From contig JAUVZL010000028.1 in the NCBI GenBank assembly GCA_030602565.1, positions 1 through 34,463 on the forward strand: 34,463 nucleotides of DNA, given 5' to 3'. The position numbers and the translations under genes were made by a program. The notes under the pieces were generated by a model, which did not search any database, was not told where the DNA came from, and worked only from the letters and a program-made list of their open reading frames with translations. Positions 484 through 26,329 of the stretch are shown here, in pieces (within the stretch, counting starts at the first letter, position 1; each line of letters starts with the position of its first letter). Source of the stretch: Candidatus Stahliibacteriota bacterium. GTDB lineage: Bacteria; Hydrothermota; Tepidihabitantia; SM23-42.

Positions 484-3400
484 TTAGCGTATGAGAATGA
501 GTTTATTCGTTACCGCGTTTTTACCAACCTCTATTCTGCCAAAGTATATACCAGCAGCAAGTTTTCGACCTTTATCATCGCAGCCTGTCCACGTGACTGA
601 GAATTGACCGGCATCTTGATATTCATCAATGAACGTTTTAACCTTCTGACCACAGACGTCGTAGATCGTGAAATTCACATCTTGTGCATAGGGCAGAGTG
701 TAGTCAATTTGCACCGAAGTCCTGAATGGATTAGGTAATATTGATAAGAAATTAGCATTAGCTCCTGGTGTCAGATCTTCATCTTCTTCAATGCCAATTG
801 TTGCCATAAGCAGAATCACGGGTACTCGTTCAGGATTATCATCAACCACAGTATTAGACCACACAAGCAGAGTATCGTAATGGTATGAGCCCTGTCCGTA
901 ACCTAATCCTGTGGTATCGACACTGACAATTACGGCAACCGAATCATCAATTGGCACATTAAACTCGGTTGGTGTAATACCAATTATCCACGGCTCGTTT
1001 TCATCCTGTGTAATACCCGTAACCTCAAGCATGCCGGTGGCACTCTCCTGATTTATTATCCACACGTTTTTGGCTCTATATCCTTCGGATATTGCATTTA
1101 CTGCCATGAGCGCATCAATCCTCCCTGCACCAGATAGATTATCTCGACCCGGGATTTCAATGTCAATAACTCCATATTCCTGGATTATACTATCAATTTG
1201 CCTTGGCAATAAACTTGGCTCTTTCTCTAACATTAAAGCGATCGTACCAGCAAGGTGCGGCTGAGAAAAAGAGGTACCATCACCTGAGACGTATCCATTA
1301 ATATCTGAGTAGTCGAGCGATTTTATAGTCACTCCTGGTGCAGCAACATCAGGCTTCATAAGACCTGGCTCAGGATTCCATGGATAATCGTTCCACGTAC
1401 CAGTGTCCCATTCAGTAGGACCATAACTTGACCAGTAAGCAACATCGTCTGATATATCAGTTGCGCCGATTGCAATTGACGCACTATTGCCACCATTTGG
1501 TGCATAATATGGTCCTGGACAATCTGCCGGCGAATTAATATCCCGGGGTACAGCATAGTGCCCGCCCGCACCATCTCCATTACCTGCAGCATTACACCAG
1601 ACAATGCCTGCTGCATATATTGTGTTGGACTGACCCCGACACCAGTTCTTTATAGTATTATCCGGATAAGGCCAGCCGATCGAGCAACTGAGTAAATCTG
1701 CACCATTGGATATGGCGTACGCGATAGCATTCCCCATCTCCGTGCTAGTACCTGGATATATTCTGAGCGCCATTATCTGGGCATCAGGTGCGACACCGGT
1801 CTGTGAACCACTCGTGCCGTCGCCTGCGACAATACCTGCGGTCATCGTTCCATGACCATTAATATCCATGGGATCAGGGTCATCATCTACAAAATCATAG
1901 CCTAAACCGCTCCACATGTGATCTGCAAGATCAAGGTGATTGTAATTCACACCCGAATCCATATGCCCGACAACTATACCAGCACCAGTATAACCAAGCC
2001 CCCATACCTGATCAGCATTAATCTTGGCAACACCCCAGCATATCTCACGACCGTCTTCAGCAATGAAATCTACGTGTTTGTATATTGGCTTTTCAGTGTT
2101 TTCAACGCCAATAAGTTGTAATGGTTCTGAATACCCGATTCCCCAGATATCATTTCTTTGAGCAATTCCTTTTATGACTTCGGGTTTAGCCTTCAAGCAA
2201 ATCGTATTCGTGGTCCATTGTGACACAATATCCAATACTTTACCTTCATTCTCTTTTTGTCTTAAATAGGAAAGGAGTGCTTTTTGGTCTTCATCTGCAA
2301 GTTGCTGACATTCAGTAATTACAAACTGTCTTCTGTCAGATTTGGACATCTGTTCAGCGCGTGGAATCAACCAGTCATAGTTCATTTGTTTCGCAAGCAT
2401 CACAAAAACCGGGATCTGCTCATCTGGTGATGATTCTGCTATTATATCAGTAAGTTTTTCATCTATTGGCATTTCACTGTGGTGTAACACATACTTTTCC
2501 GAGGAAATATCACCCCAGAAAGACCAATCATAATTAAAGAAAATGATTGACGGTCGATGTGTAATATCACCCTGACCTGCATTTTTTCCTGAAGTATAGA
2601 TTTCAATACCATCGGTTCCAGAATTGCGGGTATCCTCCCACGCGGCAAGCCAGTATCCAGAAGCATAAAGCAGAGCAACCGCATGGTAATCTCTATATAC
2701 AGTACCATTTTCATCGACTAATTCAGGATCGTTCAACCAGGTAATACCATTATCAGGTGAATAATTGAATTGCACGCGCGAATTATCGTATATATAATCA
2801 ACCCCGATTGTCTGTCCATCGCCATATAATCTGGGGAATATTTCATTCGCAGTATTATTGGTTAAATCAACAATACTCGACCAGTTTTCTCCATAGTCAG
2901 TGGAGTAATTAAACATTATATCATTATCACCACCACCAACATCTGCCTGGTAGGCGATATATGCATAGCCCTGTGAAGCGAATACTGAAGGGTATCGGTC
3001 ATCAGCAGGATTGCCTGTACCCCAGCCGTATAATCCGCCCGAACCATTAAGTGTATCCAAATAACATACGACATCCCAATCACTGCCCGCAGCGTCGTAA
3101 TACTCAATGCCATGAATAAATATTGTATCATTGCCGACAATATCGACACTAATCGATGCCTTCTCAGGATCACCGCCTGAGGGAGTAAAACTCAGACCAT
3201 AATATGCAGTCGAATCGTGCGAGAAAAGACAAAATATTTCCGGTGTTGCAGCGTCAAGATATTGCGCTATGACGAATTCATTGCCATTTCCCCATGTGAC
3301 GACTTCAGGATAAGCAAAATCAGGTATGGCAAAATAGGTAACACCATAAAGATTATCAGGATCATTATATCCGCCAATGTTTGATCGCATGAATCCCGGT

Positions 3401-3894
3401 GCATTTGTTATAGCATCAGGCGGGTTGTCCTTGGTATATGTTCCCCAAATCCAAATTTTCCCATCATCCGTAATGGCAATTTCTGGGTAACGTAGTTCAA
3501 GATTTGAACTCGAATAATAACCATAAACACGATTATCCCATGTAGCACCGTTATCTGTACTGGTAGCGAGCCCCCAGCCATATCGGCCAGTGCTTATAAT
3601 CGTTTCATAACAGACATAGATCCTACCAGTCGCATCTTCTGCCATTGAAAGTAATTGATCATCCAAATCAAAGCCATCCTCAATACGCACATCTGTGCTC
3701 CACGGAGCATCGCGACCATAATCTAACCACGGTGGGTAATTTGTAATGCCGGTGTAAACGCATTCGGCCTTGATTTCTATTGTCGCTGGTAAAACTTCTC
3801 TGTGTATTGCTGACGCAGGAATGTGAGCTGGTATCATCTCAGCAGCAAAAGCGATTGCCACCAGGCAAACCATCAATATAAATATTTTCTTCAT
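484..3894 (-). CDS. Secreted subtilisin-like serine protease (S8) with N-terminal Asp-box region and C-terminal sorting domain
   Basis: The product is a predicted 1136-residue exported peptidase. Residues 1-18 form a signal peptide (MKKIFILMVCLVAIAFAA). Residues about 45-440 carry three sialidase-type Asp boxes (STDNGATW, STDYGENW, SPDNGITW), suggesting a beta-propeller. Residues about 470-595 resemble a protease propeptide. The S8 domain (about 625-935) shows all catalytic motifs: Asp646 in MDSG, His681 in GHGTMTAG, Asn772 in AAGN and Ser875 in GTSFSQPH. Residues about 1050-1136 form a FlgD-like sorting tail (LPNPF ... GIYFGRIEV ... LILIR). I chose the ATG at 3894 because AGGAGG lies just upstream; an ATG 21 bp earlier would lengthen the leader and has no such site. 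It stands alone, with its own promoter at 4056-4083. The family call is firm; the substrate is unknown. Confidence 0.93.
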   Translation of the reverse strand: MKKIFILMVCLVAIAFAAEMIPAHIPASAIHREVLPATIEIKAECVYTGITNYPPWLDYGRDAPWSTDVRIEDGFDLDDQLLSMAEDATGRIYVCYETIISTGRYGWGLATSTDNGATWDNRVYGYYSSSNLELRYPEIAITDDGKIWIWGTYTKDNPPDAITNAPGFMRSNIGGYNDPDNLYGVTYFAIPDFAYPEVVTWGNGNEFVIAQYLDAATPEIFCLFSHDSTAYYGLSFTPSGGDPEKASISVDIVGNDTIFIHGIEYYDAAGSDWDVVCYLDTLNGSGGLYGWGTGNPADDRYPSVFASQGYAYIAYQADVGGGDNDIMFNYSTDYGENWSSIVDLTNNTANEIFPRLYGDGQTIGVDYIYDNSRVQFNYSPDNGITWLNDPELVDENGTVYRDYHAVALLYASGYWLAAWEDTRNSGTDGIEIYTSGKNAGQGDITHRPSIIFFNYDWSFWGDISSEKYVLHHSEMPIDEKLTDIIAESSPDEQIPVFVMLAKQMNYDWLIPRAEQMSKSDRRQFVITECQQLADEDQKALLSYLRQKENEGKVLDIVSQWTTNTICLKAKPEVIKGIAQRNDIWGIGYSEPLQLIGVENTEKPIYKHVDFIAEDGREICWGVAKINADQVWGLGYTGAGIVVGHMDSGVNYNHLDLADHMWSGLGYDFVDDDPDPMDINGHGTMTAGIVAGDGTSGSQTGVAPDAQIMALRIYPGTSTEMGNAIAYAISNGADLLSCSIGWPYPDNTIKNWCRGQSNTIYAAGIVWCNAAGNGDGAGGHYAVPRDINSPADCPGPYYAPNGGNSASIAIGATDISDDVAYWSSYGPTEWDTGTWNDYPWNPEPGLMKPDVAAPGVTIKSLDYSDINGYVSGDGTSFSQPHLAGTIALMLEKEPSLLPRQIDSIIQEYGVIDIEIPGRDNLSGAGRIDALMAVNAISEGYRAKNVWIINQESATGMLEVTGITQDENEPWIIGITPTEFNVPIDDSVAVIVSVDTTGLGYGQGSYHYDTLLVWSNTVVDDNPERVPVILLMATIGIEEDEDLTPGANANFLSILPNPFRTSVQIDYTLPYAQDVNFTIYDVCGQKVKTFIDEYQDAGQFSVTWTGCDDKGRKLAAGIYFGRIEVGKNAVTNKLILIR

Positions 3895-3952
3895 ACCTTC
3901 CTCCTTCCTCATCACTCCAGATATTCCTCTTGATTAGTTCTGAAGTAAGGAA

Positions 3953-4521: not shown

Positions 4522-4642
4522 TCAACCCCCACACCTAATTCTTGATTTGGTTAACGTAATCAGTCAGAGCTTCTGATGGTACAACACGTATTACTAATGA
4601 TATTCCAAAAACATGTTTCAAACAATTAGGTGTGGGGGTTGA
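4522..4642 (+). repeat. 121-bp terminal-inverted-repeat element, copy 1
   Basis: The element is bounded by perfect 19-bp inverted ends, TCAACCCCCACACCTAATT at the left and its reverse complement at the right (4624-4642). A second copy at 26209-26329 is the same length and differs at about 5 positions. A diverged inverted copy lies at 32172-32287. There is no ORF inside, so it is a non-autonomous, MITE/REP-like element. Its right end supplies the -35 box of the hsp20 promoter. Confidence 0.88.
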
Positions 4643-4666
4643 CACACCTAATTTTTAGCATATAAT
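4639..4666 (+). promoter_or_regulatory. hsp20-lon operon promoter (leaderless, -35 from repeat)
   Basis: TTGACA (4639-4644), a 16-bp spacer and TATAAT (4661-4666) form a perfect consensus. Only 5 bp separate the -10 box from the ATG at 4672, so transcription should start at or next to the start codon. The first five bases of the -35 box lie at or within the right end of the 121-bp repeat. No CIRCE inverted repeat or other heat-shock operator was seen. Confidence 0.8.
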
Positions 4667-4671: not shown

Positions 4672-5100
4672 ATGAAGCGGTCTCAGTCTGATTGTGATGT
4701 CGATACTTTGCATATTATCTTTGATCACATTCAGAATGCTGATGACCCGGATGCGTTTACCCCAGATTTTATCAATTGGCAACCGCTGTATGATCTATAC
4801 GTTACACAAGGTGAAATGGTCGTTACCATTGAAATCGCCGGCCTTAAACCAAAAGATTTTTTAATATATGCAGCAGCCAACTACCTTATAATCGATGGTA
4901 TAAGGAAATCACACGAGCTTTTAACCAAGGAATCCTGTAAATTTCATAATATTGAAATCCCTTATGGTCGCTTTAACCGAAAAATAGATTTCCCTGTGCC
5001 CGTAGAAGCAAAGCAGTACCAGTACAACATAGACAATGGCATGCTGACCTTGCGGTTCCCACTGGAAAAAGAAAGGATAATCCCCATTGAAGATGGTTGA
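4672..5100 (+). CDS. Small heat-shock protein, Hsp20/alpha-crystallin family
   Basis: The 142-residue product is a predicted ATP-independent cytoplasmic holdase. The alpha-crystallin domain spans about residues 37-135: the opening strands read WQPLYDLYVTQGEMVVTIEI followed by AGLKPKDF, YGRFNRKIDFPVPV lies in the middle, and NGMLTLRFP matches the conserved GxL strand. The tail contains an IxI-like segment (IIPI) that in this family docks subunits into oligomers. The start has no Shine-Dalgarno site, which fits the leaderless promoter directly upstream. It lies 14 bp before lon, so the operon pairs a chaperone that holds unfolded proteins with a protease that degrades them. Confidence 0.92.
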   Translation: MKRSQSDCDVDTLHIIFDHIQNADDPDAFTPDFINWQPLYDLYVTQGEMVVTIEIAGLKPKDFLIYAAANYLIIDGIRKSHELLTKESCKFHNIEIPYGRFNRKIDFPVPVEAKQYQYNIDNGMLTLRFPLEKERIIPIEDG

Positions 5101-5114
5101 GGAGGAAAAAAAGA

Positions 5115-7475
5115 ATGGCTGATCAATTGGTACCGATACCTGGCGAATTAGGCATAATCCCGATCAAAGGCGGGGTAGTCTTCCCCGAGCAAATCGTGCC
5201 GCTCATTATCCATACTCAGAAACTCGCCAAACTGATTGATGAAATAGTAACGACAAACAAACTCGCCGGTGCCCTGACTCAACGCGACCCTGAAGTCGAA
5301 GAGCCTACACCTCACCAGGTATACGATGTCGGGTGCGTCATTCAAATCAACAAAATGCTGCGCTTTCCCGATGGGACAATCAGACTGCTCATCAAAGGGT
5401 TGAAGCGCTTCAAGGTAACGGACTTTGTACAAACCCAACCATACTTAAAAACGAAAATCAAGGTGATTACTGGTAAATATAAGAAAACCATGGCCGTTGA
5501 CGCAATGATGCGTAACGCGGTAACGATGTTCCAAAAGCTCGTCTCGTTAGCGCCATACCTGCCTGACGAACTCGGTGCTATTGTCTTGAATATCGATGAT
5601 CCAGACCGGCTCGCGGATTTTGTAACCCACTACACTAACTTTGATTTCAAAGCGAAACAAAATCTATTGGAAACCTATGATCCTAAAGAGCGTTTTTCAA
5701 AACTCATCCCGGCGCTCCAAAAAGAGATAAGTGTATTAGAACTTGGCGACAAGATACGTTCTGAAGTTAAGACTGAATTGGACAAGGGACAGCGTGAATT
5801 CTATTTGCGAGAACAACTAAAGGCGATTCAGAAAGAACTCGGCGAGGGTGACGACCGCACACGGGAAATTGAAGAATTACGTAAGAAGATACGCGACGCA
5901 AAAATGCCTGAGCAAACTATGAAAGTAGCGATGAAGGAACTCGACCGGCTCTCAAGGATACCGTCTCAGGCGGCTGAGTATACAGTGGCACGGACCTATA
6001 TTGACTGGTTGATAGCAATCCCCTGGTCAAAATCTACCAAGGATAACCTTGCTATAAAAAGATCGCAGACAATTCTTGACCAAGACCACTATGATCTTGA
6101 AAAAGTGAAGGAAAGAATCCTTGAATACCTTGCCGTGAAAAAACTAAAACCAGATGCCAAGGGGACGATCCTGTGCTTTATCGGACCACCAGGCGTTGGC
6201 AAAACCTCGCTCGGCAGATCTATTGCTCGCGCCCTGGGCAGGAAGTTTGTCAGGATTTCACTGGGTGGTATCAGAGATGAAGCAGAGGTTAGAGGACATC
6301 GAAGAACCTATGTTGGAGCTTTGCCTGGTCGCATTATCCAATCCCTCAAGACCTGCGGCACAAATAACCCGGTATTTATGCTTGATGAAATCGATAAAGT
6401 CGGCACTGATTTTCGAAGTGACCCCTCTTCCGCACTGCTCGAGGTGCTCGATCCAGAACAGAATAATAGTTTCTCAGACCACTACTTAGAAGTACCTTTT
6501 GATTTATCTAATGTCATGTTTATTGCCACGGGTAATGTTATCGACCCGGTAATACCTGCGCTTAAAGACCGCATGGAGATTCTTGAACTACCCGGCTATA
6601 TCCTCGAGGAAAAAATGGAGATAGCAAAACGGTATTTAATACCGAGGCGCATTATAGAAAGTGGCCTCAACTCAGAGAATATTACGATCGATGAACAGGC
6701 ATTAAAAAGTATAATAAATGATTACACAAAAGAAGCCGGGGTCAGAAATCTTGAGCGCATGATCGGTTCGATTTGTCGCAAGGTCGCGAAACGCTTTGCA
6801 AGCGGCAAACGCAAGTCGGTTAAAATAACCCGGCATAACCTCGCCAAATTCCTTGGACCGCCAAAGACCTATTCTGAAGTCGCCGCACGCAAAGGAGAAA
6901 TCGGTGTGGCAACCGGGCTTGCCTGGACCCCCTATGGTGGCGAGATTCTATTTGTCGAGTCAATCAAGATGAAGGGCGCCAAGGAGTTAATCCTTACCGG
7001 TCTCCTGGGTGATGTTATGAAAGAGTCTTGCCAAGCCGCGCTGTCTTACTTGAAGACAAAATTGACTTCATGGAAAATCAGCGATGATATCCTCAAACAA
7101 ACCGACGTACACATACATATACCATCTGGCGCCATACCTAAAGACGGTCCCTCAGCCGGCTTGGCCGTGATCATGTCCTTGTCATCGCTAATACGAAACC
7201 AAACAATCGCCCCCAAAATTGCCTTTTCAGGTGAAATTACGCTCGCCGGACGAGTCCTTCCAGTAGGTGGCATTAAGGAAAAGGTAATCGCTGCAAAACG
7301 GGCTGGCATCACTCACATTTTCCTGCCCAAAAACAACGAAAAGGATTTGGAAGAAATCCCCAAACACGTAAGAGCCGGGTTATCATTTCAATTTGTCTCA
7401 AGTATTGAACAGGCGCTACAACTTGTCTTTTCAAAAAACACCAGGAACTTAAAGAGACAGAAAAGAAGAAAATGA
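5115..7475 (+). CDS. lon: ATP-dependent Lon protease
   Basis: The 786-residue product has the full LonA layout. An N-terminal LON substrate-binding domain (about 5-200) starts LVPIPGELGIIPIKGGVVFP. A coiled-coil linker is followed by an AAA+ module with Walker A GPPGVGKT (357-364) and Walker B VFMLDEID. The C-terminal protease domain has the catalytic Ser680 in PKDGPSAG and the catalytic Lys in GGIKEK. It degrades misfolded and regulatory proteins in the cytoplasm. I chose the ATG at 5115 because GGAGG lies 9 bp upstream; an in-frame TTG at 5097 inside the hsp20 end is less likely. The stop overlaps the next ATG by 4 bp (ATGA). All catalytic residues are present, so it should be active. Confidence 0.97.
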   Translation: MADQLVPIPGELGIIPIKGGVVFPEQIVPLIIHTQKLAKLIDEIVTTNKLAGALTQRDPEVEEPTPHQVYDVGCVIQINKMLRFPDGTIRLLIKGLKRFKVTDFVQTQPYLKTKIKVITGKYKKTMAVDAMMRNAVTMFQKLVSLAPYLPDELGAIVLNIDDPDRLADFVTHYTNFDFKAKQNLLETYDPKERFSKLIPALQKEISVLELGDKIRSEVKTELDKGQREFYLREQLKAIQKELGEGDDRTREIEELRKKIRDAKMPEQTMKVAMKELDRLSRIPSQAAEYTVARTYIDWLIAIPWSKSTKDNLAIKRSQTILDQDHYDLEKVKERILEYLAVKKLKPDAKGTILCFIGPPGVGKTSLGRSIARALGRKFVRISLGGIRDEAEVRGHRRTYVGALPGRIIQSLKTCGTNNPVFMLDEIDKVGTDFRSDPSSALLEVLDPEQNNSFSDHYLEVPFDLSNVMFIATGNVIDPVIPALKDRMEILELPGYILEEKMEIAKRYLIPRRIIESGLNSENITIDEQALKSIINDYTKEAGVRNLERMIGSICRKVAKRFASGKRKSVKITRHNLAKFLGPPKTYSEVAARKGEIGVATGLAWTPYGGEILFVESIKMKGAKELILTGLLGDVMKESCQAALSYLKTKLTSWKISDDILKQTDVHIHIPSGAIPKDGPSAGLAVIMSLSSLIRNQTIAPKIAFSGEITLAGRVLPVGGIKEKVIAAKRAGITHIFLPKNNEKDLEEIPKHVRAGLSFQFVSSIEQALQLVFSKNTRNLKRQKRRK

Positions 7476-8548
7476 TATTATTTCTTCTCATGATGATCGA
7501 ATGGCAGGCCGTCAATAAAGCCTATAATGACTTTGAACAAGAACTTATAGTCTACTTCAGTATCTCAGACGATAACCTGAAATACGTCACTGACGATTCG
7601 ATATTTTACGCAGAATATGAGGTTCAAATAAAAATATTTAATAAACAAGGGAATCAACTGACCGGCGACTACTGGGAAGGGATTGTGTTTAAAAGCGACG
7701 AAGAGGTAAACGACTCACTAAAGATAATCATCCCGAAAACCAGCCGCTATTATGATCTGAAAATAATAGACTTCAATGCCGGACCAATCCTCAGTGTAAG
7801 CGAAAAGATTGTTCAGATAAACTATATCGGTAGTATAAAATGGGATATATTCGATAACACGCTATCAATAGTATTCTCGATAATCAACCCTGAAGGCGAA
7901 GCGATCAATATGAATTTCTCGATCGACGAGATTGAGCAGATGGTCAAAATAGAAAAAGGTGATTACGATGATACCGTGATTTTCTACATCGCGTCGCTGC
8001 CTAATGGCGACTACACGCTAAACATAAAAACCTACTCACCGCTAAGAATGATCGATGAAACAAAAATACCGATAAAGATAGCCAGACCATTTTATCTTGA
8101 TGAAACAACCTGGAATCTTAAAGTTAACCAGCTTGAATACATTGCAACAACCTCGGAAATTAGAAAGCTAAGGGATGCAAAAAAAAGAGCAAGAGATTCA
8201 CTGTGGCACGATGTCTGGAAAGAACATGACCCTACCCCTAATACTGAATATAACGAAAAAGAAGTCGAGTACTTCGAACGTATCCAGTATTGCGAAGAAC
8301 ACTTCTCCCACGGTGACAAAGGATGGCGCAGTGACCGCGCTCTTATCTACGTCAAATCAGGGAAACCAGATGAGATCACCCATTACCCCTACTACATCGC
8401 CTCGATAAACCCATACAAGCCGGCAGAGACCTTGTATGATTCATATGAGGTCTGGCATTATTACAAATTCAATAAAAAGTACGTCTTTGGCGATCGCTAC
8501 GGTTTTGGTGAGTTTATGCTTCTTAACCCGGATGGATCAAGTCTATGA
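7472..8548 (+). CDS. GWxTD domain-containing protein, first of two
   Basis: This 358-residue protein is recognised by its C-terminal GWxTD region (about 235-320). A charged KKRARDSLWHDVWKEHDPTP segment leads into GWRSDRALIYVKSGKPDEI, where Thr of GWxTD is replaced by Ser. The family is widespread in FCB-type bacteria and its function is unknown. A short hydrophobic start (MILFLLMMIEW) may be a weak signal sequence. Residues about 20-200 are beta-rich and unassigned. Translation is coupled to lon through an ATGA overlap, and to the next gene by another 4-bp overlap. The pairing with hsp20 and lon suggests a role in protein quality control or envelope stress, but this is inference from position only. 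Confidence 0.85.
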   Translation: MILFLLMMIEWQAVNKAYNDFEQELIVYFSISDDNLKYVTDDSIFYAEYEVQIKIFNKQGNQLTGDYWEGIVFKSDEEVNDSLKIIIPKTSRYYDLKIIDFNAGPILSVSEKIVQINYIGSIKWDIFDNTLSIVFSIINPEGEAINMNFSIDEIEQMVKIEKGDYDDTVIFYIASLPNGDYTLNIKTYSPLRMIDETKIPIKIARPFYLDETTWNLKVNQLEYIATTSEIRKLRDAKKRARDSLWHDVWKEHDPTPNTEYNEKEVEYFERIQYCEEHFSHGDKGWRSDRALIYVKSGKPDEITHYPYYIASINPYKPAETLYDSYEVWHYYKFNKKYVFGDRYGFGEFMLLNPDGSSL

Positions 8549-9840
8549 TCTTACTATTGACCAGTCTGTTCCTAAATCAAACCATAGATTTCTATGTCGA
8601 TCCAGTGGTCTACCTTTCCACTGTAACAATCGAAGATACCATCACAAAAACCGTCAAACAAAAGGACATCTTTTATATTGAGTTCAATTGTGAAATCCCT
8701 TATCATGAACTCTATTATGAGGAAAGCGATAGTGGCATCATCACCCGAGCGACCATCCCATTTGAGATAGTAAATCTTGACCAAGCCGACACGCTGGTTG
8801 ATACCCTATATCGTCTGTTTACACTTCCTTCGTTTTCCGAAGCAGCACGACAACAGATGTCATTTCTCATTCAGTTCGGACTGCACATGCTCGAAGGTAA
8901 TTTCAAATATAGCATCAGCATTATGTCAAAGGACAAAAAAGGAACGGTCGAGAAATCATTGACCATCAACCGAATAGATTATCCGATGAGCGATATCTTA
9001 CTCGCCAAAGAAATTGTGACCGACACAGTTGGCGATTATCTGAAAAAGGGTAACCTTAAGATCGTCCCGCTTCCTTCCCATAAGTTCAGCGAGCGCTATA
9101 CCACGCTCTATCTTTATTATGAAATCTACGACCTTACCGTTGATGCGAATGAACTAAGAGTTACCTATGAAATTGTGAACGCCCAGGGCGAAAAAGTCCG
9201 TCAAATATCACAGCAAGTCACCAAGAAGTACACATCCCAGGCAGTAAATGTTGGTTTGAATATTGCGCAGTTTGAACGTGGTGAGTATCAGTTGAGCATC
9301 AAGATCTACGACCCGAGCACCGAAAGTACGATACGCAAAGACCTATCCTTCGAGATCACGAAACAAGTCTCTGAAGACATAAGTTATGAGGACTTGCCAT
9401 ACTATTATAAAATTGCTTATTTTCTAAAGCCTGGTGATTACAAGAAATTTCAAGAAATACCCGAGAAAGGAAAGAAAATCTTCCTCGAGAAATTCTGGAG
9501 CCAACATGACTACTACAAAACTGCGGCGAGGTTCGTTTACGCGGACGAGCATTTTAAAGAAGGCTATAAACCTGGACATGAAACAGACCGTGGCAGAATA
9601 TATGTCAAGTTCGGTCCTTATGATGAAATCACAACCAGTGTTATTGAGGTATGGGAGAGCAAGCCCTACGAGATGTGGGAATATAGTAATGGCCTGCGCT
9701 TTGTCTTTGTTGACATCCGGAGTACGGCTGAATTCACCTTGGTCTGGACAAATTCAACTGAAGAACAGTCTCAACCAACACTCTTTGACTATCTTCCTGA
9801 ATCCGTCAAAAGAGAGTTGCCCGCTGGGACTTTCGATTAG
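8545..9840 (+). CDS. GWxTD domain-containing protein, second of two
   Basis: The 431-residue product has an N-terminal hydrophobic stretch (MILLLTSLFLNQTI) that could be a signal sequence. A beta-rich N-terminal region, a central Ig-like part (about 175-275) and a C-terminal GWxTD region (about 280-400) follow. The signature reads PGHETDRGRIYVKFGPYDEI, with His in place of the Trp. The segment KKIFLEKFWSQHDYYKTAA before it is also typical of the family. The ATG overlaps the stop of the preceding GWxTD gene by 4 bp, so the two are probably made in fixed ratio and may form a pair. Function is unknown. Confidence 0.87.
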   Translation: MILLLTSLFLNQTIDFYVDPVVYLSTVTIEDTITKTVKQKDIFYIEFNCEIPYHELYYEESDSGIITRATIPFEIVNLDQADTLVDTLYRLFTLPSFSEAARQQMSFLIQFGLHMLEGNFKYSISIMSKDKKGTVEKSLTINRIDYPMSDILLAKEIVTDTVGDYLKKGNLKIVPLPSHKFSERYTTLYLYYEIYDLTVDANELRVTYEIVNAQGEKVRQISQQVTKKYTSQAVNVGLNIAQFERGEYQLSIKIYDPSTESTIRKDLSFEITKQVSEDISYEDLPYYYKIAYFLKPGDYKKFQEIPEKGKKIFLEKFWSQHDYYKTAARFVYADEHFKEGYKPGHETDRGRIYVKFGPYDEITTSVIEVWESKPYEMWEYSNGLRFVFVDIRSTAEFTLVWTNSTEEQSQPTLFDYLPESVKRELPAGTFD

Positions 9841-9881: not shown

Positions 9882-10523
9882 ATGGAAGACCATGAAGTTC
9901 TAAAAAAAGAAATCAAAGATATTGTCAAGCAAAGTATTAAACAAGAAATGCAACAATATTTTCAAAATGCAACAAATGGTGATTGCAAAAAAATATTTGA
10001 CGAAATACGTTCTTTAAAAAAACTTATTGAATCATCACCAATTTTCCAAAAAGAAAAAATTGCATTGTTTGTTGACTCGCAAAATCTCTATTACTCAGCC
10101 CGCATGGGCTATGCGGCAAAAGTCAATTATGAAAAGCTCTTAAGACTCATCACTGCGAACCGGCAATTGGTTAAGGCGTACGCATATATTGTGCAACCAC
10201 CAGACGGTGATGTGAAACCTTTTGCAGCCAGTCTCGAACGTTTCGGCTACGTTGTTAAGACCAAAGATGTAAGAACACGTTTAGATGGTTCGGCAAAAGC
10301 AAACTGGGATATGGGCATGGCTTTGGATATTCTCAACACCCTCGACAACGTCGACACAATAATCTTAGCTTCAGGTGACGGTGATTTCGTACCACTCGTG
10401 GAATTCATTAAGTCAAAGAACAAACGAGTAGAGATATATGCATTTTCCGATAATACAGCTTACGATCTAAAAGAAAAAGCAGACAAATTTGAACCCCTCG
10501 GCGAAAACGTCATTCTCATGTGA
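9882..10523 (+). CDS. LabA-like NYN domain protein (PIN-fold nuclease family)
   Basis: The 213-residue product has an N-terminal helical or coiled-coil segment (1-55, rich in Lys, Glu and Gln) and a NYN domain (58-213). The acidic residues expected for a metal-dependent ribonuclease are present: Asp65 in LFVDSQN, Asp143 in NWDMGMALD, and Asp166 and Asp168 in ASGDGDF. The family cleaves or binds RNA in the cytoplasm; the substrate is unknown here. Translation starts at an ATG with a strong AGGAGG site 6-7 bp upstream, 41 bp after the second GWxTD gene. It is probably on the same transcript as lon. Confidence 0.9.
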   Translation: MEDHEVLKKEIKDIVKQSIKQEMQQYFQNATNGDCKKIFDEIRSLKKLIESSPIFQKEKIALFVDSQNLYYSARMGYAAKVNYEKLLRLITANRQLVKAYAYIVQPPDGDVKPFAASLERFGYVVKTKDVRTRLDGSAKANWDMGMALDILNTLDNVDTIILASGDGDFVPLVEFIKSKNKRVEIYAFSDNTAYDLKEKADKFEPLGENVILM

Positions 10524-10535: not shown

Positions 10536-11372
10536 ATGATTGATTACCACATTCACACGAACCACTCGATCGACGCTGAGGGCAAGTTAGAAGAGTACTG
10601 CAAAAGGGCACTATCCATTGGCTTAGAGGAAATTTGCTTCACCAATCACTGCGAGTTAGACCCCGCAAGAGATGATTCTTACATATGTTTCAACGGTCGG
10701 CGAGAGAAATTCACGCGCCAGGGTTTATTGCGGCTACAGGATGAAATCTTAGAGCAAAAGCGTGAAAATAGAAACTCCGGACTGAGTATAAAATTCGGCA
10801 TCGAAATCGGCTATTATAAAGGTATTGAGCCGCGCCTCCATGAAATCATCGATGGTGTTGAACTCGATTTTGTCCTCGGCAGCATCCATTGTCTCGACCA
10901 CATCTGCATTGACAGTTCCCGAGAACACACGACCTATTTTTCCAAACATTCGGCACACACCATGCTGGTGAATTATTTCCAAACGGTGGAAGATTTAGTG
11001 AAAAGCAATTTCTTCAATGCGGTTGGTCACCTCGATGTTTACAAGAAATACGGCATAGCTTATTACAAAGATGATATAGACGAGGTTATCGTTGAGTCGC
11101 TGCAGAGGATATACAGAATGATGGTCGAGCAAAACATCGCGCTTGAGATAAACACCGCGGGATTACGCCGCATTGACCAATTTTATCCCAGTTCAATGAT
11201 CGTTAAATACGCGCGCGAACAGGGTCTTGATATGATAACGATTGGCTCTGACGCACACCGCGTAGAAGACCTTGGTAAAGATATTGCAAAAGGGCTTGAG
11301 TATGCAAAATCCTTTGGTTTTGATGCTGTCTACAGGTTTAATAAGAAACAACCAATAAGGGTAAAAATCTAA
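10536..11372 (+). CDS. PHP domain phosphoesterase, histidinol-phosphatase (HisJ)-like
   Basis: The 278-residue product contains the ordered metal-binding motifs of the PHP family: HIHTNHSIDAEG (residues 5-16), FTNHCE (35-40), FGIEIGYYKGIE, LGSIHCLD, GHLDVYKKYG and GSDAHR near the C-terminus. These ligands hold a two- or three-metal centre that hydrolyses phosphomonoesters. The closest named group is HisJ-type histidinol-phosphatase, but no his genes are nearby, so the substrate is uncertain. It starts 12 bp after the NYN gene with only a weak ribosome site, so it is probably the last gene of the hsp20-lon operon. I see no convincing terminator before gyrA. Confidence 0.88.
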   Translation: MIDYHIHTNHSIDAEGKLEEYCKRALSIGLEEICFTNHCELDPARDDSYICFNGRREKFTRQGLLRLQDEILEQKRENRNSGLSIKFGIEIGYYKGIEPRLHEIIDGVELDFVLGSIHCLDHICIDSSREHTTYFSKHSAHTMLVNYFQTVEDLVKSNFFNAVGHLDVYKKYGIAYYKDDIDEVIVESLQRIYRMMVEQNIALEINTAGLRRIDQFYPSSMIVKYAREQGLDMITIGSDAHRVEDLGKDIAKGLEYAKSFGFDAVYRFNKKQPIRVKI

Positions 11373-11438: not shown

Positions 11439-11466
11439 TTGACAGTGGCTGAATTCTGGCTATAAT
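11439..11466 (+). promoter_or_regulatory. gyrA promoter (leaderless)
   Basis: TTGACA (11439-11444), a 16-bp spacer and TATAAT (11461-11466) are followed after 6 bp by the gyrA ATG at 11473. There is no Shine-Dalgarno site, so a leaderless transcript is predicted. This promoter is not at a repeat end. Confidence 0.8.
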
Positions 11467-11472: not shown

Positions 11473-13893
11473 ATGGAAGAGCGTATAACTAATGTCTACA
11501 TTGAAGATGAAATAAGATCATCATACTTGGATTATGCAATGAGCGTCATTGTGGGACGCGCTTTACCTGATGCCCGTGACGGCTTGAAACCGGTACAGCG
11601 CCGTATCCTCTATGCCATGGAAGAAGCAGGATTACTATCGAACCGAGCCTACAAGAAAGCAGCAACAGTGGTTGGTAACGTCCTTGGAAAATACCATCCT
11701 CATGGTGACATGGCAATATACGACGCCCTGGTCCGCATGGCACAGAATTTCTCTATGCGCTATGTTCTTATCGACGGCCAGGGTAATTTCGGGTCAGTGG
11801 ATGGTGATGCCGCAGCTGCCTACCGTTATACTGAGGCACGACTCACATCTTTAGCTGAAGAACTGCTGGGGGATTTCAAAAAAGACACGGTTGATTTCGT
11901 CCCGAATTTTGACGGAACCCTAAAAGAACCCACGGTCTTGCCAGCCGCTTATCCCAACCTTCTGTGTAACGGCTCGTCTGGTATCGCGGTTGGCATGGCA
12001 ACGAATATCCCACCCCACAACCTCGGCGAATTAGTTGCCGCGCTCAACGCAATGATCGACAAACCTGACATCAAAGATGAAGACATAATGGAGCTTGTGA
12101 CCGGCCCAGATTTTCCAACCGGCGGTATTATCATCGGAAAAACCGGCATCAAACAAGCTTACAAAACTGGCAAAGGTCGGGCCGTCACAAGAGGAAAAAT
12201 CAGGATTGAGGATATAAAGGGCGGCAAGCAGGCAATCGTCATAACTGAAATCCCCTATCAAGTGAACAAGAGTTCGCTTATAGAAAAAATAGCCGCACTG
12301 GTACGTGCCAAAAAACTTGAAGGCATTTCTGATTTAAGGGATGAATCAGATAAAGACGGCATTAGAATTATGATCGAGCTTAAAAGAGATGCCAATTCTC
12401 AGGTAGTTCTCAATAATCTATATAAACATACTGCTTTACAATCGACGTTCAGTATCCAACTGCTGGCACTGGTTTCAGGGGCGCCAAAGATTTTTACTTT
12501 GAAGGAGGCTTTAAAAACTTTCCTGGACTTTCGCTTTGAAGTAATGACGCGGCGCACAAAATTTGAGTTGGCTGAAGCAGAAAAGCGCGCCCATATCCTT
12601 GAAGGTCTTAGAATCGCCATTGAAAATATCGATGAAGTCGTGCAGATCATTAAGAAATCAAGGGATGTTAAGGTCGCTAAGAAAAAACTAATGGAAAGGT
12701 TTTCACTCAGTGAAATACAGGCTCAATCTATTCTGGACATGAGATTGGCAAGGTTAACAAATCTTGAAAAAGAGGCGTTGGAAAAAGAATACCTGGGCTT
12801 GATAAAAGAGATTGCCAGACTGAAATCAATCCTCGAATCGCCCAAAGGTGTATACCTGCTTATAAAAAAAGAACTTAACGAACTGAACGCTAAGTATCAA
12901 GAACCGAGACGCACGCAGATCATCGATGCCGAACCTGAAGAACTGAGCATGGAGGACCTTATCGGCGAAGAAGATATGGTTATTACTGTAACCCATCGAG
13001 GTTATATCAAACGCCAGCCCATTACCACTTACAGAAATCAATCGCGCGGGGGTCAGGGAAGAAAGATCGTTGAAATCGGTGAACAGGATTTTGCCAACCA
13101 GCTGCTTATCTGTCTGACTACTGATACCTTGCTGTTTTTTTCAAATAAAGGCAAGGTCTATGCGCGTAAGGTCTATGAAATACCTGAAGCAGGACCATTC
13201 TCCAAGGGACGTTCGATCGCCAACTTCATTGAAATGAGTGATGGCGAAAAAGTTACTGCATGTCTGTCTATAAAAGACTTTTCACCTGAGCATTACGTCT
13301 TCATGGCTACGAAAATGGGTAAAGTGAAGAAAACTTCTCTGGTGGATTTTTCACATATAAGAAGAGTGGGGATAATCGCCATTAAATTACTTGCTCGCGA
13401 TCGACTCATTGCGGTTGGCTTAACTGATGGAGCAAACTCAATATTCCTTACAACCCACGATGGCTTGACCATTCGATTTTCTGAAAAACTCGTTCGTCCC
13501 ATGGGCAGAAATGCCTCAGGCGTGAAAGGCATAAGATTAGCTAAAACGAATGAAGTCGTCGGCTTCAATATTGCCAAAGAGAACGAGGACATGCTCATCG
13601 TTGCTGAAAAAGGTATTGGGAAACGGGTTAAATTCAGCGCGATCAATGAAAAAGGCAGAGCGGGCAAAGGGATGAAGGGTATGAAAATCGATGCGAAAAC
13701 CGGGAAAGTCGCCGGCGTTACCAATGTTAGTGATGACGACGATTTGATTGTTATGACTAAAGCCGGTAAAGTCATCCGAACACCGGTCAATAAAATCCGC
13801 GTGCTGAGCCGCCAGGCAAAGGGCGTAAAGATCATTACCCTGGCAAAAAATGATACAGTCTGCTCAATCGCCTGCATCAAAGCACAAGTGTAA
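11473..13893 (+). CDS. gyrA: DNA gyrase subunit A
   Basis: The 806-residue product is the breakage-reunion subunit of type IIA topoisomerase. The N-terminal half has the winged-helix and tower region with catalytic Tyr119 in [10 protein letters not shown]. The quinolone-determining stretch reads [10 protein letters not shown] (75-84), with Met80 where E. coli has Ser83. A C-terminal beta-pinwheel (about 495-800) is built of repeated blades. A degenerate GyrA box, QSRGGQG, lies at its start where gyrase normally has Q(R/K)RGG(R/K)G. Length and pinwheel favour GyrA over ParC, but I cannot exclude a single enzyme serving both roles. gyrB is not in the window. A dCMP deaminase gene starts 19 bp downstream. 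Confidence 0.95.
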
Positions 13894-14686: not shown

Positions 14687-16261
14687 TCAGCGTAGAATAA
14701 CCAAAGACCGTGACACTCTACAACCAGGCGTTTCTACTACAAGGAAATGCGTTCCCTGAGCAAGCCCGCGGGTATCAACATCAATTGTATGAAACCCGGC
14801 TTGCACGTATTCTCCCACGACATCCTTGACCACCTGGCCAACTGTATTGTACAGCTTGACTGACAACACTCCAGCACGAAGCGTGGCAAATGAAACTTGT
14901 GCAACGCCGGACACTGGATTCGGTGTAATCAATAGACCAGAATTCACCTTGTGCATATGTTCTTCTTCTATGCCGGTATATAAAAACCAGTACATATCAT
15001 ACCAAAGCTGTGCCCACTTATCAACGAGCACCAGCGCAGTATCCGGTCTTTCCTGAAGAGAATCCCAGTCTGTAAACATTACCGCGAATACCATAAAAAC
15101 ACTGGAATCAGGGAGTATATCAAAAGGACCTGAACTCATGAGAAATCTCTGGTCATCAGGTAAAGGCGGTGCTGTATCATATGGCTCGTAAACCATAGTC
15201 TTAAAGTTGTACCCGGCTAAGGTAAGATAACGCTCATTGTCAAGGTTTGGCTCAAGATTCAGGGTAAAACGTTTGAATGCACTCATGCCGTGCTGAGGAT
15301 TTTCTGACGCATCACGCCAGTCAGGCACATTATCATAATCAACATCCCACATACTCTGAGGTAGATTATTCCAGTAATAACTGCTGTCCCGTTCATACTG
15401 GTCAAGGATACCGTCATTATCCTTATCCTGCCCTTCTACCAGATCAAAAGGAGTCTGCAGCAAGTCGAATGCTATGGCTCCTGGCCACCACACTGGCGGT
15501 GGAGTGGGTTCCATCTGAGTTTGCCATTGATAGCCAAGGTTATCGACCAGAATCGTATCACCATCAATTATGTATTCCTGGCTGACAATACCTGCGATAA
15601 TATCATTACCTGTACCAGCTTCATTACCAATATCATTATCCGCAGCGATACCGACATAACAATCATACAGGTTATGACCTGAAACATTTTTTATCTCATA
15701 GGTCAAAAAGACAATGTCCTCAATCTGCGGGATATCCCATGCATACCCGGTCTGATACATTTCAATACCGATGGGTCTTGTGTCACCGGGGATGTGAGCA
15801 TTAGTATCGAGATCATTCATGCAGCACCAGGAGTCTTCATGAGATACCGTATCCTGCGGCGCCATTGGTAAGGCAGTATCAGGCGCAGGCCAATTCTCAG
15901 GGTGCATAAAGATAATCGCATCTGGATGATTGATTAACATACCCTCAAGTCCAGGTACGAATTCACTTTCTCCACCATGAGGACCATACCCAATAGTCAC
16001 TAAGGTATCGCCAGTTGCCGAATCAACGGTGCCAAACCATATACCAGCTCCATAGATATAGTTATGACCACTCCCTTTTGGCCACCAACATCCCGCGCCT
16101 CCTGCACTATCCTGCCCCAATTTACCATAGTTCGTTATCCAAAGTTCAACCTGGTTAGTGTCGTGGACCGCCGTGTCAAAGGGTCTACCCCCGCTATTAT
16201 TATACCTGGCATTTCCTGCCAGGAACATCGTTGATAATAGTAGCACAATAGATACTCTCAT
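14687..16261 (-). CDS. Secreted protein of unknown function with C-terminal sorting domain
   Basis: The 524-residue product begins with a signal peptide (MRVSIVLLLSTMFLAGNA). It ends in a FlgD-like/type A sorting tail (about 443-524: LLITPNPVSG, VKLYNTVGQVVKD, SRSLVILR), suggesting export across both membranes or anchoring at the surface. The middle is aromatic- and Asp-rich, with calcium-binding-like DKDNDGILDQYERD and DVDYDNVPDW segments around residues 270-315. I do not recognise a catalytic domain. AGGAGG precedes the ATG by 5 bp. It lies 99 bp downstream of the large BTAD regulator on the same strand, with a truncated GC-rich repeat between them, so it is a plausible but unproven target of that regulator. 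Confidence 0.8.
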   Translation of the reverse strand: MRVSIVLLLSTMFLAGNARYNNSGGRPFDTAVHDTNQVELWITNYGKLGQDSAGGAGCWWPKGSGHNYIYGAGIWFGTVDSATGDTLVTIGYGPHGGESEFVPGLEGMLINHPDAIIFMHPENWPAPDTALPMAPQDTVSHEDSWCCMNDLDTNAHIPGDTRPIGIEMYQTGYAWDIPQIEDIVFLTYEIKNVSGHNLYDCYVGIAADNDIGNEAGTGNDIIAGIVSQEYIIDGDTILVDNLGYQWQTQMEPTPPPVWWPGAIAFDLLQTPFDLVEGQDKDNDGILDQYERDSSYYWNNLPQSMWDVDYDNVPDWRDASENPQHGMSAFKRFTLNLEPNLDNERYLTLAGYNFKTMVYEPYDTAPPLPDDQRFLMSSGPFDILPDSSVFMVFAVMFTDWDSLQERPDTALVLVDKWAQLWYDMYWFLYTGIEEEHMHKVNSGLLITPNPVSGVAQVSFATLRAGVLSVKLYNTVGQVVKDVVGEYVQAGFHTIDVDTRGLAQGTHFLVVETPGCRVSRSLVILR

Positions 16262-24327: not shown

Positions 24328-24332
24328 GGGGT

Positions 24333-24360
24333 ATTATAAATGAATGTACATAAATGTCAA
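24333..24360 (-). promoter_or_regulatory. metG operon promoter (leaderless, -35 from repeat end)
   Basis: On the minus strand TTGACA (24360-24355), a 16-bp spacer and TATAAT (24338-24333) stand 5 bp before the metG ATG, with no Shine-Dalgarno site. The -35 box is the outer edge (GGGGTTGACA) of the repeat at 24355-24440. Confidence 0.8.
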
Positions 24361-24914: not shown

Positions 24915-26162
24915 TTATTTAATCAAGCGAACTACTTTTTTCACTAAAATCTTATGCCTCTGTCTTAGAGATACAAAATAGATACCCGATGAAACCTTTT
25001 TGCCCTTATTGTCTGTTCCATTCCAACACACAGATTTCACAGATTTATTTTGATTACACAGATTAATAGGAAAAATACGAATGAGCCGTCCTGAAATATC
25101 ATAGATTTCAAGGGAAATAGGCTCGGCAATTGGTGCGGAAAATTCAATACTCAAACGATTGGTGAATATATTTGGCGAAATATTAAAGGTGAAATCTGTA
25201 ATATTTGTATTCTCTTCAAAAATACCAGTTGGCTCGGTTGTAAAACTATAAAAACTTCCATCTGCCGCCTCAAGGGAGTCAAGGACACTAAATGCCTGCA
25301 GATTGATGCGGGCACATAAAGATTCACTTGGCACAATCCAGGTGTAAATACCGGTATTCGGTGCCAAAGCGTCAATCAGTGTCCATTCAATTGAATCGTA
25401 TGTTGATGCATACCAGAGTTTTACATAATTAATATCACTGCCGTATGAATCCCAGGTAATGTCAACTGGTGTATTATATTGAAAGACAATACCAGAATCA
25501 GTCGGATAGGTGATAAATATGTTATTGGGATTTGCACCACCAGGGACCACGGTAACCACATAATCATAAGAATATGTGCCATTATGATACGTCCATAATG
25601 GCAAGGCATCTTCCCAACCCCAGAAATTTTTTACAATAACGAATGTATCAGGTGGCGCGATGATATAACCAATCGCACAAAAAGATGTATTAACGAACTG
25701 CCCTTGATAATAATAATGGAACACATTCCAAACACACGGTCTACCATTATCAATCTCATTTTTTATCCAGGAGAAGTTATATTGATTCCATGAACCGCCC
25801 TGGGTTGATGTCTGGGATTGAAAATCATAACCATTTAGAGAATCGGTGACATAAATAATACCGGGTCCGATATTACTGATATAGGTTGCTCCCATCATCG
25901 TATCAGTATGCATTGCCAGGGCAAGTTCCCTGATAACATTAGGTATGTTCTTAGGACTATCTTGGAAGTCATAGAAGAAGTCTACAAGTCTTCCATAATC
26001 CCTTGGGTCCCAATACCATAATATCATTGCCGCCGCCTGTGGTGAACTTCCATAACAGAATTTAACAAATGGCACTGAATCAATAATAACCGTATCCCTT
26101 ACAAGAATAGATTCATTAGAGTCAGTAAGACTGATTAAAAATAAAAACATAAAAATCTGCAT
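24915..26162 (-). CDS. Secreted C39-like (papain-fold) protein, probably catalytically inactive, with sorting domain
   Basis: The 415-residue product starts with a hydrophobic signal (MQIFMFLFLISLTDS). Residues about 30-205 resemble the peptidase C39-like fold of secreted cysteine proteases: YGSSPQAAAMILWYWD matches the active-site helix, CAIGYI the histidine strand and FVIVKNFWGW the final strand. Where such domains have Cys before P(T/A), this reads Ser; the His expected before CAIGY is absent. A beta-sandwich (about 210-315) and a sorting tail (about 325-415, LEIYDISGRLIRI ... GIYFVSLRQ) follow. The leader has only a weak AGAAGAAG ribosome site. It is divergent from the four-gene membrane cassette, and both promoters use one shared repeat. 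The fold call is moderate and the loss of activity is inferred from motif alignment by eye. Confidence 0.7.
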   Translation of the reverse strand: MQIFMFLFLISLTDSNESILVRDTVIIDSVPFVKFCYGSSPQAAAMILWYWDPRDYGRLVDFFYDFQDSPKNIPNVIRELALAMHTDTMMGATYISNIGPGIIYVTDSLNGYDFQSQTSTQGGSWNQYNFSWIKNEIDNGRPCVWNVFHYYYQGQFVNTSFCAIGYIIAPPDTFVIVKNFWGWEDALPLWTYHNGTYSYDYVVTVVPGGANPNNIFITYPTDSGIVFQYNTPVDITWDSYGSDINYVKLWYASTYDSIEWTLIDALAPNTGIYTWIVPSESLCARINLQAFSVLDSLEAADGSFYSFTTEPTGIFEENTNITDFTFNISPNIFTNRLSIEFSAPIAEPISLEIYDISGRLIRIFPINLCNQNKSVKSVCWNGTDNKGKKVSSGIYFVSLRQRHKILVKKVVRLIK

Positions 26163-26184: not shown

Positions 26185-26212
26185 ATTATACTTTATTTAT
26201 AAAAAATGTCAA
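26185..26212 (-). promoter_or_regulatory. Promoter of the C39-like gene (-35 from repeat end)
   Basis: On the minus strand TTGACA (26212-26207), a 16-bp spacer and TATAAT (26190-26185) form a consensus promoter. Its -35 box straddles the left end of the 121-bp element. The predicted leader is about 17 nt, so this transcript is not leaderless. Confidence 0.78.
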
Positions 26213-26329
26213 CCCCCACACCTAATTCTTGATTTGGTTAACGTAATCAGCCAAAGCTTCTGATGGTACAACACAAATCACTAATGATATTCCAAAAACA
26301 TGTTTCAAACAATTAGGTGTGGGGGTTGA
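26209..26329 (+). repeat. 121-bp terminal-inverted-repeat element, copy 2, between divergent promoters
   Basis: The 19-bp inverted ends are identical to copy 1 (4522-4642) and the interior differs at about 5 of 121 positions. It fills the gap between two divergent genes, and each end provides a TTGACA -35 box reading outward. Confidence 0.88.

What the first reader, a model, noticed from the sequence alone, without database searches (positions are those of the whole stretch)
4672..9840. GWxTD gene pair coupled to hsp20 and lon
Two GWxTD-domain genes follow lon with 4-bp overlaps, in one transcript with a small heat-shock protein. GWxTD proteins have no known function. Tight coupling with two proteostasis genes hints at a role in protein quality control, perhaps at the envelope. 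Both signatures are altered (GWRSD and GHETD), so the pair may have diverged together.
Basis: partly seen in the sequence, partly recalled or inferred. Interest (0 to 1): 0.5.

Follow-up and report, generated by a model that had tools for sequence, protein, structure and literature searches.

The report
Envelope gene pair behind hsp20-lon operon
Two related genes of unknown job, probably for cell-envelope proteins, sit right behind two protein-care genes in one order of uncultured bacteria, but elsewhere the same genes live without them, so the neighbourhood is a local arrangement and a better clue is that these genes tend to occur in bacteria with a particular outer-membrane export pore.

Summary
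The operon is real: hsp20, lon, two GWxTD genes (4-bp overlaps), NYN and PHP, in a WOR-3/Stahlbacteria genome. A perfect sigma-70 promoter ends 5 nt before the hsp20 start, so the mRNA is probably leaderless; 16 of 20 relatives share this layout. The lon link is conserved in the order (26 of 26 genomes with GW1) and in one genome of a third family, but rarely elsewhere: 0 of 30 loci in the rest of the class, 2 of 40 in a wider phylum sample, 0 of 40 in other phyla. Nineteen WOR-3 genomes with no Lon over the family cut-off (14 at least 90% complete) all keep GWxTD genes. So GWxTD does not need Lon, and a quality-control role is weakly supported. The 'altered' motifs are the normal forms of two old paralogues. 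GW1 and GW2 are full-length paralogues with hydrophobic N-termini, two Ig-like sandwiches and the GWxTD domain. New lead: across 194 genomes of other phyla GWxTD tracks the type IX secretion pore SprA (40 of 44 against 8 of 150), uncorrected for ancestry and with exceptions. Best reading: core envelope genes of SprA-bearing bacteria, captured behind hsp20-lon in one lineage. Function remains inferred.

The parts
4639..4666 (+). sigma-70 promoter TTGACA-N16-TATAAT; the -10 box ends 5 nt before the hsp20 ATG, so the mRNA is probably leaderless
   Evidence: 12 of 12 consensus match; 0 mismatches and an in-frame start 5-8 nt behind (5 nt in 14) in 16 of 20 f1/f2 relatives with a called hsp20
4672..5100 (+). 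hsp20 small heat-shock protein, first gene of the operon
   Evidence: PF00011 E 2.9e-9; present in 23 of 24 f1-f3 loci with sequence upstream of lon, window included
5115..7475 (+). lon protease; start chosen at ATG 5115 behind GAGGAGG; the open frame begins at TTG 5097
   Evidence: TIGR00763 936 bits; sequence
7472..8548 (+). GW1: probably exported protein, two Ig-like sandwiches plus C-terminal GWxTD domain; ATGA overlap with lon
   Evidence: TIGR04514 1.1e-22, PF20094 3.5e-12; model pLDDT 83.6, pTM 0.51
8126..8464 (+). GWxTD domain of GW1, with the motif GWRSD at 8321-8335
   Evidence: form GW-x-SD in 25 of 25 lon-linked GW1
8545..9840 (+). GW2: full-length paralogue of GW1; ATGA overlap with GW1
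   Evidence: TIGR04514 1.8e-14; GW1 against GW2 profiles hhalign probability 100, E 8e-48 over 356 columns; model pLDDT 86.3, pTM 0.62
9409..9687 (+). GWxTD domain of GW2, with the motif GHETD at 9574-9588
9882..10523 (+). NYN-domain protein, 41 nt behind GW2
   Evidence: PF01936 3.5e-35; adjacent in 22 of 26 f1-f3 loci, window not counted
10536..11372 (+). PHP-family phosphatase (HisJ-like), probable last gene of the transcript
   Evidence: PF02811 4.2e-24, TIGR01856 over cut-off
11439..11466 (+). second perfect sigma-70 promoter, 6 nt before gyrA ATG 11473; suggests a separate gyrA transcript

Best explanation
GW1 and GW2 are paralogous envelope proteins that belong to the core gene set of SprA-bearing (FCB-type) diderm bacteria, not to a Lon or Hsp20 machine. 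In this order of WOR-3 the pair lies behind hsp20-lon and is made from one sigma-70, probably leaderless, transcript with translational coupling at the two ATGA overlaps, so the cell makes both in step with housekeeping proteostasis genes. Shown: the gene order, the paralogy, the conservation, the lineage-limited lon link, and persistence in genomes without a recognisable Lon. Inferred: the single transcript and coupling, export through Sec by a short hydrophobic N-terminus, residence in the periplasm or at the outer membrane, and a job in outer-membrane or type IX export assembly, in which the Ig-like sandwiches act as spacer or binding arms and the GWxTD module as the conserved contact surface. 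My odds: 0.8 that the pair is core envelope and not Lon-dependent, 0.35 that its job is in the SprA/outer-membrane assembly pathway.
For: TIGR04514 in 141 of 147 WOR-3 genomes, two copies in 93 of the 141 by my count of the rows. GW1-GW2 paralogy over 356 columns. Strongly hydrophobic stretch within the first 60 residues in 203 of 223 GW proteins against 0 of 110 lon, hsp20, NYN, PHP and gyrA proteins. Two beta sandwiches and an alpha/beta C-terminal domain in both models. Lon link nearly confined to f1-f3. No Lon over cut-off in 19 of 19 tested genomes that carry GWxTD. SprA matches in 145 of 147 WOR-3 genomes, over cut-off in 130; in 194 other-phylum genomes SprA (E up to 1e-25) in 40 of 44 GWxTD-positive and 8 of 150 GWxTD-negative. 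Three proteins encoded in this window carry a T9SS sorting tail over cut-off. Purifying selection: dN/dS 0.09-0.17 against G002 and G001; 0.32 (GW1) and 0.15 (GW2) against the closer G003, where dS is small.
Against: The SprA association is not corrected for shared ancestry. Four GWxTD-positive genomes have no SprA match, and eight strong SprA genomes, including the two best SprA scores, have no PF20094 match; at the loose SprA cut of 1e-3 the split is 40 of 44 against 35 of 150. No T9SS family is among the 25 commonest Pfam families shown for the near neighbours scanned (98 of 109 listed in other phyla, 90 of 121 in other phylum members). The N-termini of GW1 and GW2 in this window are short and lack Lys or Arg, and the 60-residue hydrophobicity test can also pick up a buried strand, so export is not certain. 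f4 (7 of 8 genomes) and f25 (4 of 4) have a single GWxTD gene, so a pair is not obligatory. The PDB matches listed with ranges lie in the common beta sandwiches.
Confidence: 0.45

Rival explanations
1. General envelope housekeeping pair with no special tie to SprA or to Lon: GWxTD follows SprA only because both descend in the FCB-like group, and hsp20-lon is an accidental operon neighbour.
For: Neighbours change from lineage to lineage and are mostly housekeeping genes: PSP1 in 27 of 30 class loci, YraN in 10 of 40, RimO in 9 of 40, LD-carboxypeptidase in 6 of 40, SMC in 4 of 40; SprA-positive genomes without GWxTD and the reverse exist.
Against: The SprA association is strong in genomes drawn from many families (40 of 44 against 8 of 150), although the number of independent events is unknown.
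Confidence: 0.35
2. Envelope protein-quality-control module: Hsp20 and Lon in the cytosol and GW1/GW2 outside form one stress-response unit.
For: hsp20-lon-GW1-GW2 linkage is conserved in f1, f2 and G027 of f3 with tight spacing. In f21 lon lies about 3, 10, 10 and 14 kb from the pair in 4 of 4 genomes, and in G067 of f12 about 5 kb (coordinates compared by eye), so an older loose neighbourhood is not excluded.
Against: No lon in 30 of 30 other class loci or 40 of 40 other-phylum loci; 19 GWxTD-bearing genomes have no Lon over cut-off; the promoter is plain sigma-70 and gyrA has the same type. Other heat-shock operators were not sought.
Confidence: 0.12
3. In this order GW1 has become a cytosolic or membrane-edge partner or substrate of Lon: its N-terminus is too short for a standard signal peptide.
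For: GW1 begins MILFLLMMIEWQ, 9 residues before the first predicted strand (residue 10), with no Lys or Arg; a [WY]Q pair follows at the same place in 11 of 11 f1/f2 rows.
Against: The hydrophobic start is kept in 22 of 25 f1-f3 GW1 and in 23 of 24 f1-f3 GW2; relatives outside the order have longer hydrophobic starts.
Confidence: 0.05

Closest known systems
GWxTD domain family (NCBIfam TIGR04514, Pfam PF20094)
   Same: Both proteins score over the TIGR04514 cut-off; shared blocks around [ST]DR-x-x-IY-x-x-x-G-x-x-DEI and W-x-Y
   Different: GW2 is under the PF20094 cut-off and lacks the Trp of the motif; the genes directly follow hsp20-lon, which I saw only in f1-f3
hsp20-lon gene couple
   Same: Small heat-shock gene directly upstream of lon; hsp20 is also next to lon in L132 and L155 of other WOR-3 classes
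   Different: Here it carries two envelope-type genes, NYN and PHP behind it, and a probably leaderless sigma-70 promoter
Type IX secretion / FCB-type outer-membrane biogenesis (SprA; BamG and BamH of Flavobacterium, PMC12611786, passages read)
   Same: GWxTD follows the phyletic pattern of SprA; the passage read reports that BamG/BamH presence goes with SprA across FCB phyla
   Different: No GWxTD protein is named in the passages read, and 'GWxTD' is in no paper of the library; GW1/GW2 have no T9SS sorting tail and no T9SS family is among the neighbour families shown
BamE/SmpA (PF04355)
   Same: Possible register T-x-x-R-x-IY-x-x-G-x-PDEI...W-x-Y with the BamE pattern; predicted helix then strands
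   Different: No Pfam match; hhalign P 0.03-0.04, 3 of 150 column shuffles score as high: a lead, not a match

Membership tests
GWxTD domain family | TIGR04514 score over curated cut-off (28 bits) | tested here: met
   GW1 80.5, GW2 54.1 bits
GWxTD domain family | PF20094 score over gathering cut-off (26.9 bits) | tested here: inconclusive
   GW1 46.9 met; GW2 20.0 not met
GWxTD domain family | literal motif G-W-x-[TS]-D | tested here: inconclusive
   GW1 GWRSD met; GW2 GHETD lacks Trp, as do most GW2 proteins (Trp in 21 of 104)
Lon/Hsp20 quality-control module | gene link to lon or hsp20 across lineages | tested here: not met
   f1-f3, plus 2 of 40 phylum loci with lon and 3 of 40 with hsp20; 0 of 30 (rest of class) and 0 of 40 (other phyla) for both
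Lon/Hsp20 quality-control module | co-occurrence with Lon | tested here: not met
   19 of 19 tested genomes without Lon over cut-off carry GWxTD; one of them (G104) has a long lon fragment
Lon/Hsp20 quality-control module | heat-shock type regulation | tested here: inconclusive
   sigma-70 consensus promoter found; no expression data, other heat-shock operators not sought
T9SS / SprA pathway component | co-occurrence with SprA | tested here: inconclusive
   40 of 44 against 8 of 150, not corrected for ancestry, with exceptions both ways
T9SS / SprA pathway component | gene neighbourhood with T9SS genes | tested here: inconclusive
   none among the 25 commonest neighbour families shown; rarer families are not listed and not every neighbour was scanned
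T9SS cargo | C-terminal sorting tail TIGR04183 | tested here: not met
   no TIGR04183 match for GW1 or GW2 at E up to 1; the weak PF18962 match of GW2 (E 0.053) lies at residues 202-254, not at the C-terminus
BamE/SmpA (PF04355) | Pfam match or significant profile match | tested here: not met
   PF04355 not among the families shown at E up to 5; hhalign probability 1.4-1.7
obligate GW1-GW2 heterodimer | predicted or measured complex | not testable with these tools
   only single chains can be folded here; f4 and f25 have a single GWxTD gene

The most novel reading that the evidence does not exclude
GWxTD proteins are an unrecognised accessory factor of FCB-type outer-membrane biogenesis: a periplasmic or outer-membrane chaperone or scaffold for SprA-class giant pores and type IX export, with two Ig-like arms and a BamE-like C-terminal contact module. 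In one WOR-3 order it has been placed under the same transcript as hsp20-lon, so that envelope assembly capacity is set together with cytosolic proteostasis.
Probability: 0.2. Interest if true: 0.75.

Novelty: new member of a known kind. Interest (0 to 1): 0.42.

Why it matters
GWxTD proteins are near-universal in a whole phylum (141 of 147 genomes) and present in 44 of 194 sampled genomes of others, yet two searches of the paper library found none that names them. Showing that the lon link is lineage-limited removes a misleading clue, and the SprA profile gives a concrete, testable place to look: outer-membrane assembly and type IX export in FCB-type bacteria. The probably leaderless sigma-70 layout of this operon also recurs through this genome.

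Tried and rejected
BamE/SmpA kinship of the GWxTD domain: suggested to me by the pattern R-x-IY-xx-G-x-P...W-x-Y. hhalign of A1 against a small BamE profile (E. coli K-12 BamE plus seven genome hits, two of them under the PF04355 cut-off) gave P 0.038, A2 a one-column match with P 0.22, and a C-terminal profile of 225 rows (100 kept by hhalign) P 0.03 with 3 of 150 column-shuffled controls as high. Kept as a lead only.

Fold search: the top 50 rows with ranges match common Ig/FnIII-like sandwiches: GW1 best Z 10.8, rmsd 2.3, 99 aligned; GW2 best Z 11.1, rmsd 2.6, 107 aligned; the best Foldseek hits are Vibrio RbmA. By sequence, no PDB match for the A1 profile and only weak matches for A2, nearly all PKD-like, around profile positions 220-266.

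Co-divergence of the pair: partial distance correlation 0.71 given gyrA, no better than GW1 or GW2 with PHP (0.71), so rejected as evidence of interaction.

Heat-shock promoter: I expected one before hsp20 and found a perfect sigma-70 promoter instead.

Literature: 'GWxTD' 0 papers; 'GWxTD domain', TIGR04514 and PF20094 0 papers (the one listed paper matched DUF6536, an unrelated term I had added). Stahlbacteria with leaderless: 0 papers. Two WOR-3 papers were searched for passages: 'secretion', 'T9SS', 'type IX' and 'leaderless' have 0 occurrences in both main texts.

Rows dropped: ORFs with X (runs of N) were left out of the counts, and GW proteins outside 250-600 aa out. Gene calls are by longest open frame, so some starts are wrong (for example GW1 in L068 and GW2 in L091).
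Full report
WHAT IS THERE. The window is contig C71 of a 2.74-Mb genome, 96% complete. Of the 31 named relatives found with the GW1 profile, all are titled candidate division WOR-3 or Stahlbacteria except one titled TA06. On the + strand lie hsp20 (4672-5100), lon (ATG 5115 to 7475), GW1 (7472-8548), GW2 (8545-9840), an NYN protein (9882-10523) and a PHP phosphatase (10536-11372), then gyrA (11473-13893). lon/GW1 and GW1/GW2 overlap by ATGA; lon starts 14 nt behind hsp20, behind GAGGAGG. GW1 and GW2 both exceed the TIGR04514 cut-off; GW2 falls below the Pfam cut-off. Their profiles align over 356 columns (probability 100), so they are full-length paralogues. The genome holds a second, more divergent GWxTD pair on contig C38 (its second member is under the cut-off) with no lon or hsp20 in an 18-kb stretch around it (L064).

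HOW IT IS EXPRESSED. A 12-of-12 sigma-70 promoter (4639-4666) ends 5 nt before the hsp20 ATG. A promoter with 0 mismatches and an in-frame start 5-8 nt behind (5 nt in 14 cases) is present in 16 of 20 f1/f2 relatives with a called hsp20. gyrA has its own promoter of the same kind (11439-11466). TTGACA-N15-17-TATAAT-N4-8-ATG matches 109 times in the genome (at least one site counted twice through two ATGs) against 0 for the reversed control pattern. I infer leaderless initiation, as argued for such -10 placements in other bacteria (PMC3160421, passages read), and a transcript from hsp20 to PHP; neither is measured, and weaker internal promoters are not excluded.

IS THE LINK TO LON GENERAL? No. 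In families f1 and f2 (the window's order) GW1 was found in 26 of 27 genomes (the miss, G015, is 53% complete), and lon lies directly upstream in all 26. Two of these scaffolds contain runs of N: in G018 GW1 is broken by one, and in G022 GW2 lies at another place. G027 of f3, a third family of the class, has the same order. hsp20 is upstream in 23 of 24 f1-f3 loci with enough sequence; it was not found in G005. In 30 loci of other families of the class (f4-f9): lon 0, hsp20 0, PSP1 adjacent in 27. In 40 further loci (39 from other classes, one from f10 of this class): lon in 2 (L132, 4.5 kb, same strand; L155, 2.8 kb, opposite strand), hsp20 in 3. In 40 loci from 33 genomes of other phyla: 0 and 0. 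Comparing coordinates by eye, lon is also about 3, 10, 10 and 14 kb from the pair in the four f21 genomes; I could not explain this, and it leaves room for an older loose neighbourhood.

IS LON NEEDED? 22 of 147 WOR-3 genomes have no lon match at E 1e-150. I tested 19 of these with TIGR00763 (not G001, whose lon is cut by a contig end; not G015, 53% complete; not G050, which has no GWxTD): none over cut-off, one with a long fragment (G104). All 19 have GWxTD genes; 14 are at least 90% complete and at most 5% contaminated. At the thresholds used GWxTD (141 of 147) is more nearly universal than lon (125 of 147).

MOTIFS. In a 225-protein alignment, lon-linked GW1 is GWRSD in 23 of 25 and GW-x-SD in 25 of 25; lon-linked GW2 is GxxTD without Trp in 22 of 25, with Trp in 2, and GSTTE in 1. 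Outside the phylum Trp is kept in at least 28 of 29 GW1-like and 17 of 22 GW2-like proteins. So the window's motifs are regular forms of two old paralogues, not a joint alteration.

ARCHITECTURE. 203 of 223 GW proteins have a strongly hydrophobic 8-residue stretch within their first 60 residues, against 0 of 110 lon, hsp20, NYN, PHP and gyrA proteins from the same loci. The test does not identify signal peptides as such. In this window the stretch is at the very start, short, and without Lys or Arg. Models (30- and 24-row alignments) show two beta sandwiches and an alpha/beta C-terminal domain; mean pLDDT 83.6 and 86.3, pTM 0.51 and 0.62, so the arrangement of the domains is uncertain. Listed known-structure matches with ranges lie in the sandwiches.

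A BETTER CLUE. SprA (TIGR04189), the type IX translocon pore, gives a match in 145 of 147 WOR-3 genomes, over cut-off in 130. In the 194 other-phylum genomes of one fixed sample, PF20094 is in 44 and SprA at E up to 1e-25 in 48; they coincide in 40, Fisher P 8e-29. With the loose cut 1e-3 it is 40 of 44 against 35 of 150. The P value ignores ancestry, and there are exceptions both ways: G176, G221, G309 and G328 have GWxTD without SprA; G169, G204, G225, G276, G278, G321, G329 and G331 have SprA without PF20094, and G329 and G225 are the two best SprA scores. A recent study calls SprA FCB-specific and notes that BamG and BamH go with it (PMC12611786, passages read). This window encodes three proteins with T9SS sorting tails. 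I therefore place the pair in the envelope gene set of SprA-bearing bacteria, with an assembly role as the most likely but unproven function.

NEIGHBOURS ELSEWHERE. In other phyla GW genes sit next to RimO (9 of 40 loci), LD-carboxypeptidase (6), MacB-type permeases (5) or SMC (4), with FtsY (8), PurH (4) and MreB (4) within 4 kb on the same strand; in other WOR-3 loci next to YraN (10 of 40). Pfam scans bear out the RimO, FtsY, LD-carboxypeptidase, MacB/FtsX and YraN (UPF0102) names; SMC, PurH and MreB are my reading of the sequences. These are mostly housekeeping genes and differ by lineage, which is why I give the lon link little weight. None of the commonest neighbour families shown is a T9SS component.

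VERDICT. A real, order-wide operon; the quality-control idea is weakened by genomes without Lon and by changing neighbours; the envelope part of the idea stands as inference; the SprA profile is the lead to follow.

Noticed in passing
window 4639-4666, 11439-11466, 24325-24360 (- strand); genome-wide: Perfect sigma-70 promoters directly abutting start codons: 109 matches of TTGACA-N15-17-TATAAT-N4-8-ATG in the genome against 0 for the reversed control, which suggests widespread leaderless transcription in this genome.
   Followed up: partly
window 4522-4642, 26209-26332, 32171-32286; G000:C38:24900-25020: A roughly 120-bp MITE-like repeat with 22-nt inverted ends: three copies in this window (the second and third 96 and 82% identical to the first) and one weaker copy (70%) elsewhere; its end overlaps the -35 box of the hsp20 promoter here.
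   Followed up: partly
window 484-3915, 14687-16261, 24915-26162 (- strand): Three proteins with type IX secretion sorting tails (TIGR04183 over cut-off), one of them with a subtilisin-type protease match.
   Followed up: partly
G000:C38:14163-15600 (L064): A second, divergent GWxTD gene pair in the same genome, away from lon and hsp20; two-gene GW2-like loci also in G005, G006 and G025 (L072, L070, L069).
   Followed up: partly
L174, L176, L177, L179, L184: In several other-phylum genomes a GWxTD gene lies in a recurring cluster with some of FtsY, RimO, LD-carboxypeptidase, PurN, PurH and MreB.
   Followed up: partly
L194, L200, L209, L210: In four other-phylum loci a GWxTD gene of the GW2 type lies directly behind what I read as smc, on the same strand.
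   Followed up: no
L037-L067 and L166: In most f4-f9 loci the GWxTD genes are directly followed by PSP1 (27 of 30), often with thiC within 4 kb (16 of 30); the f10 locus L166 also has both.
   Followed up: partly
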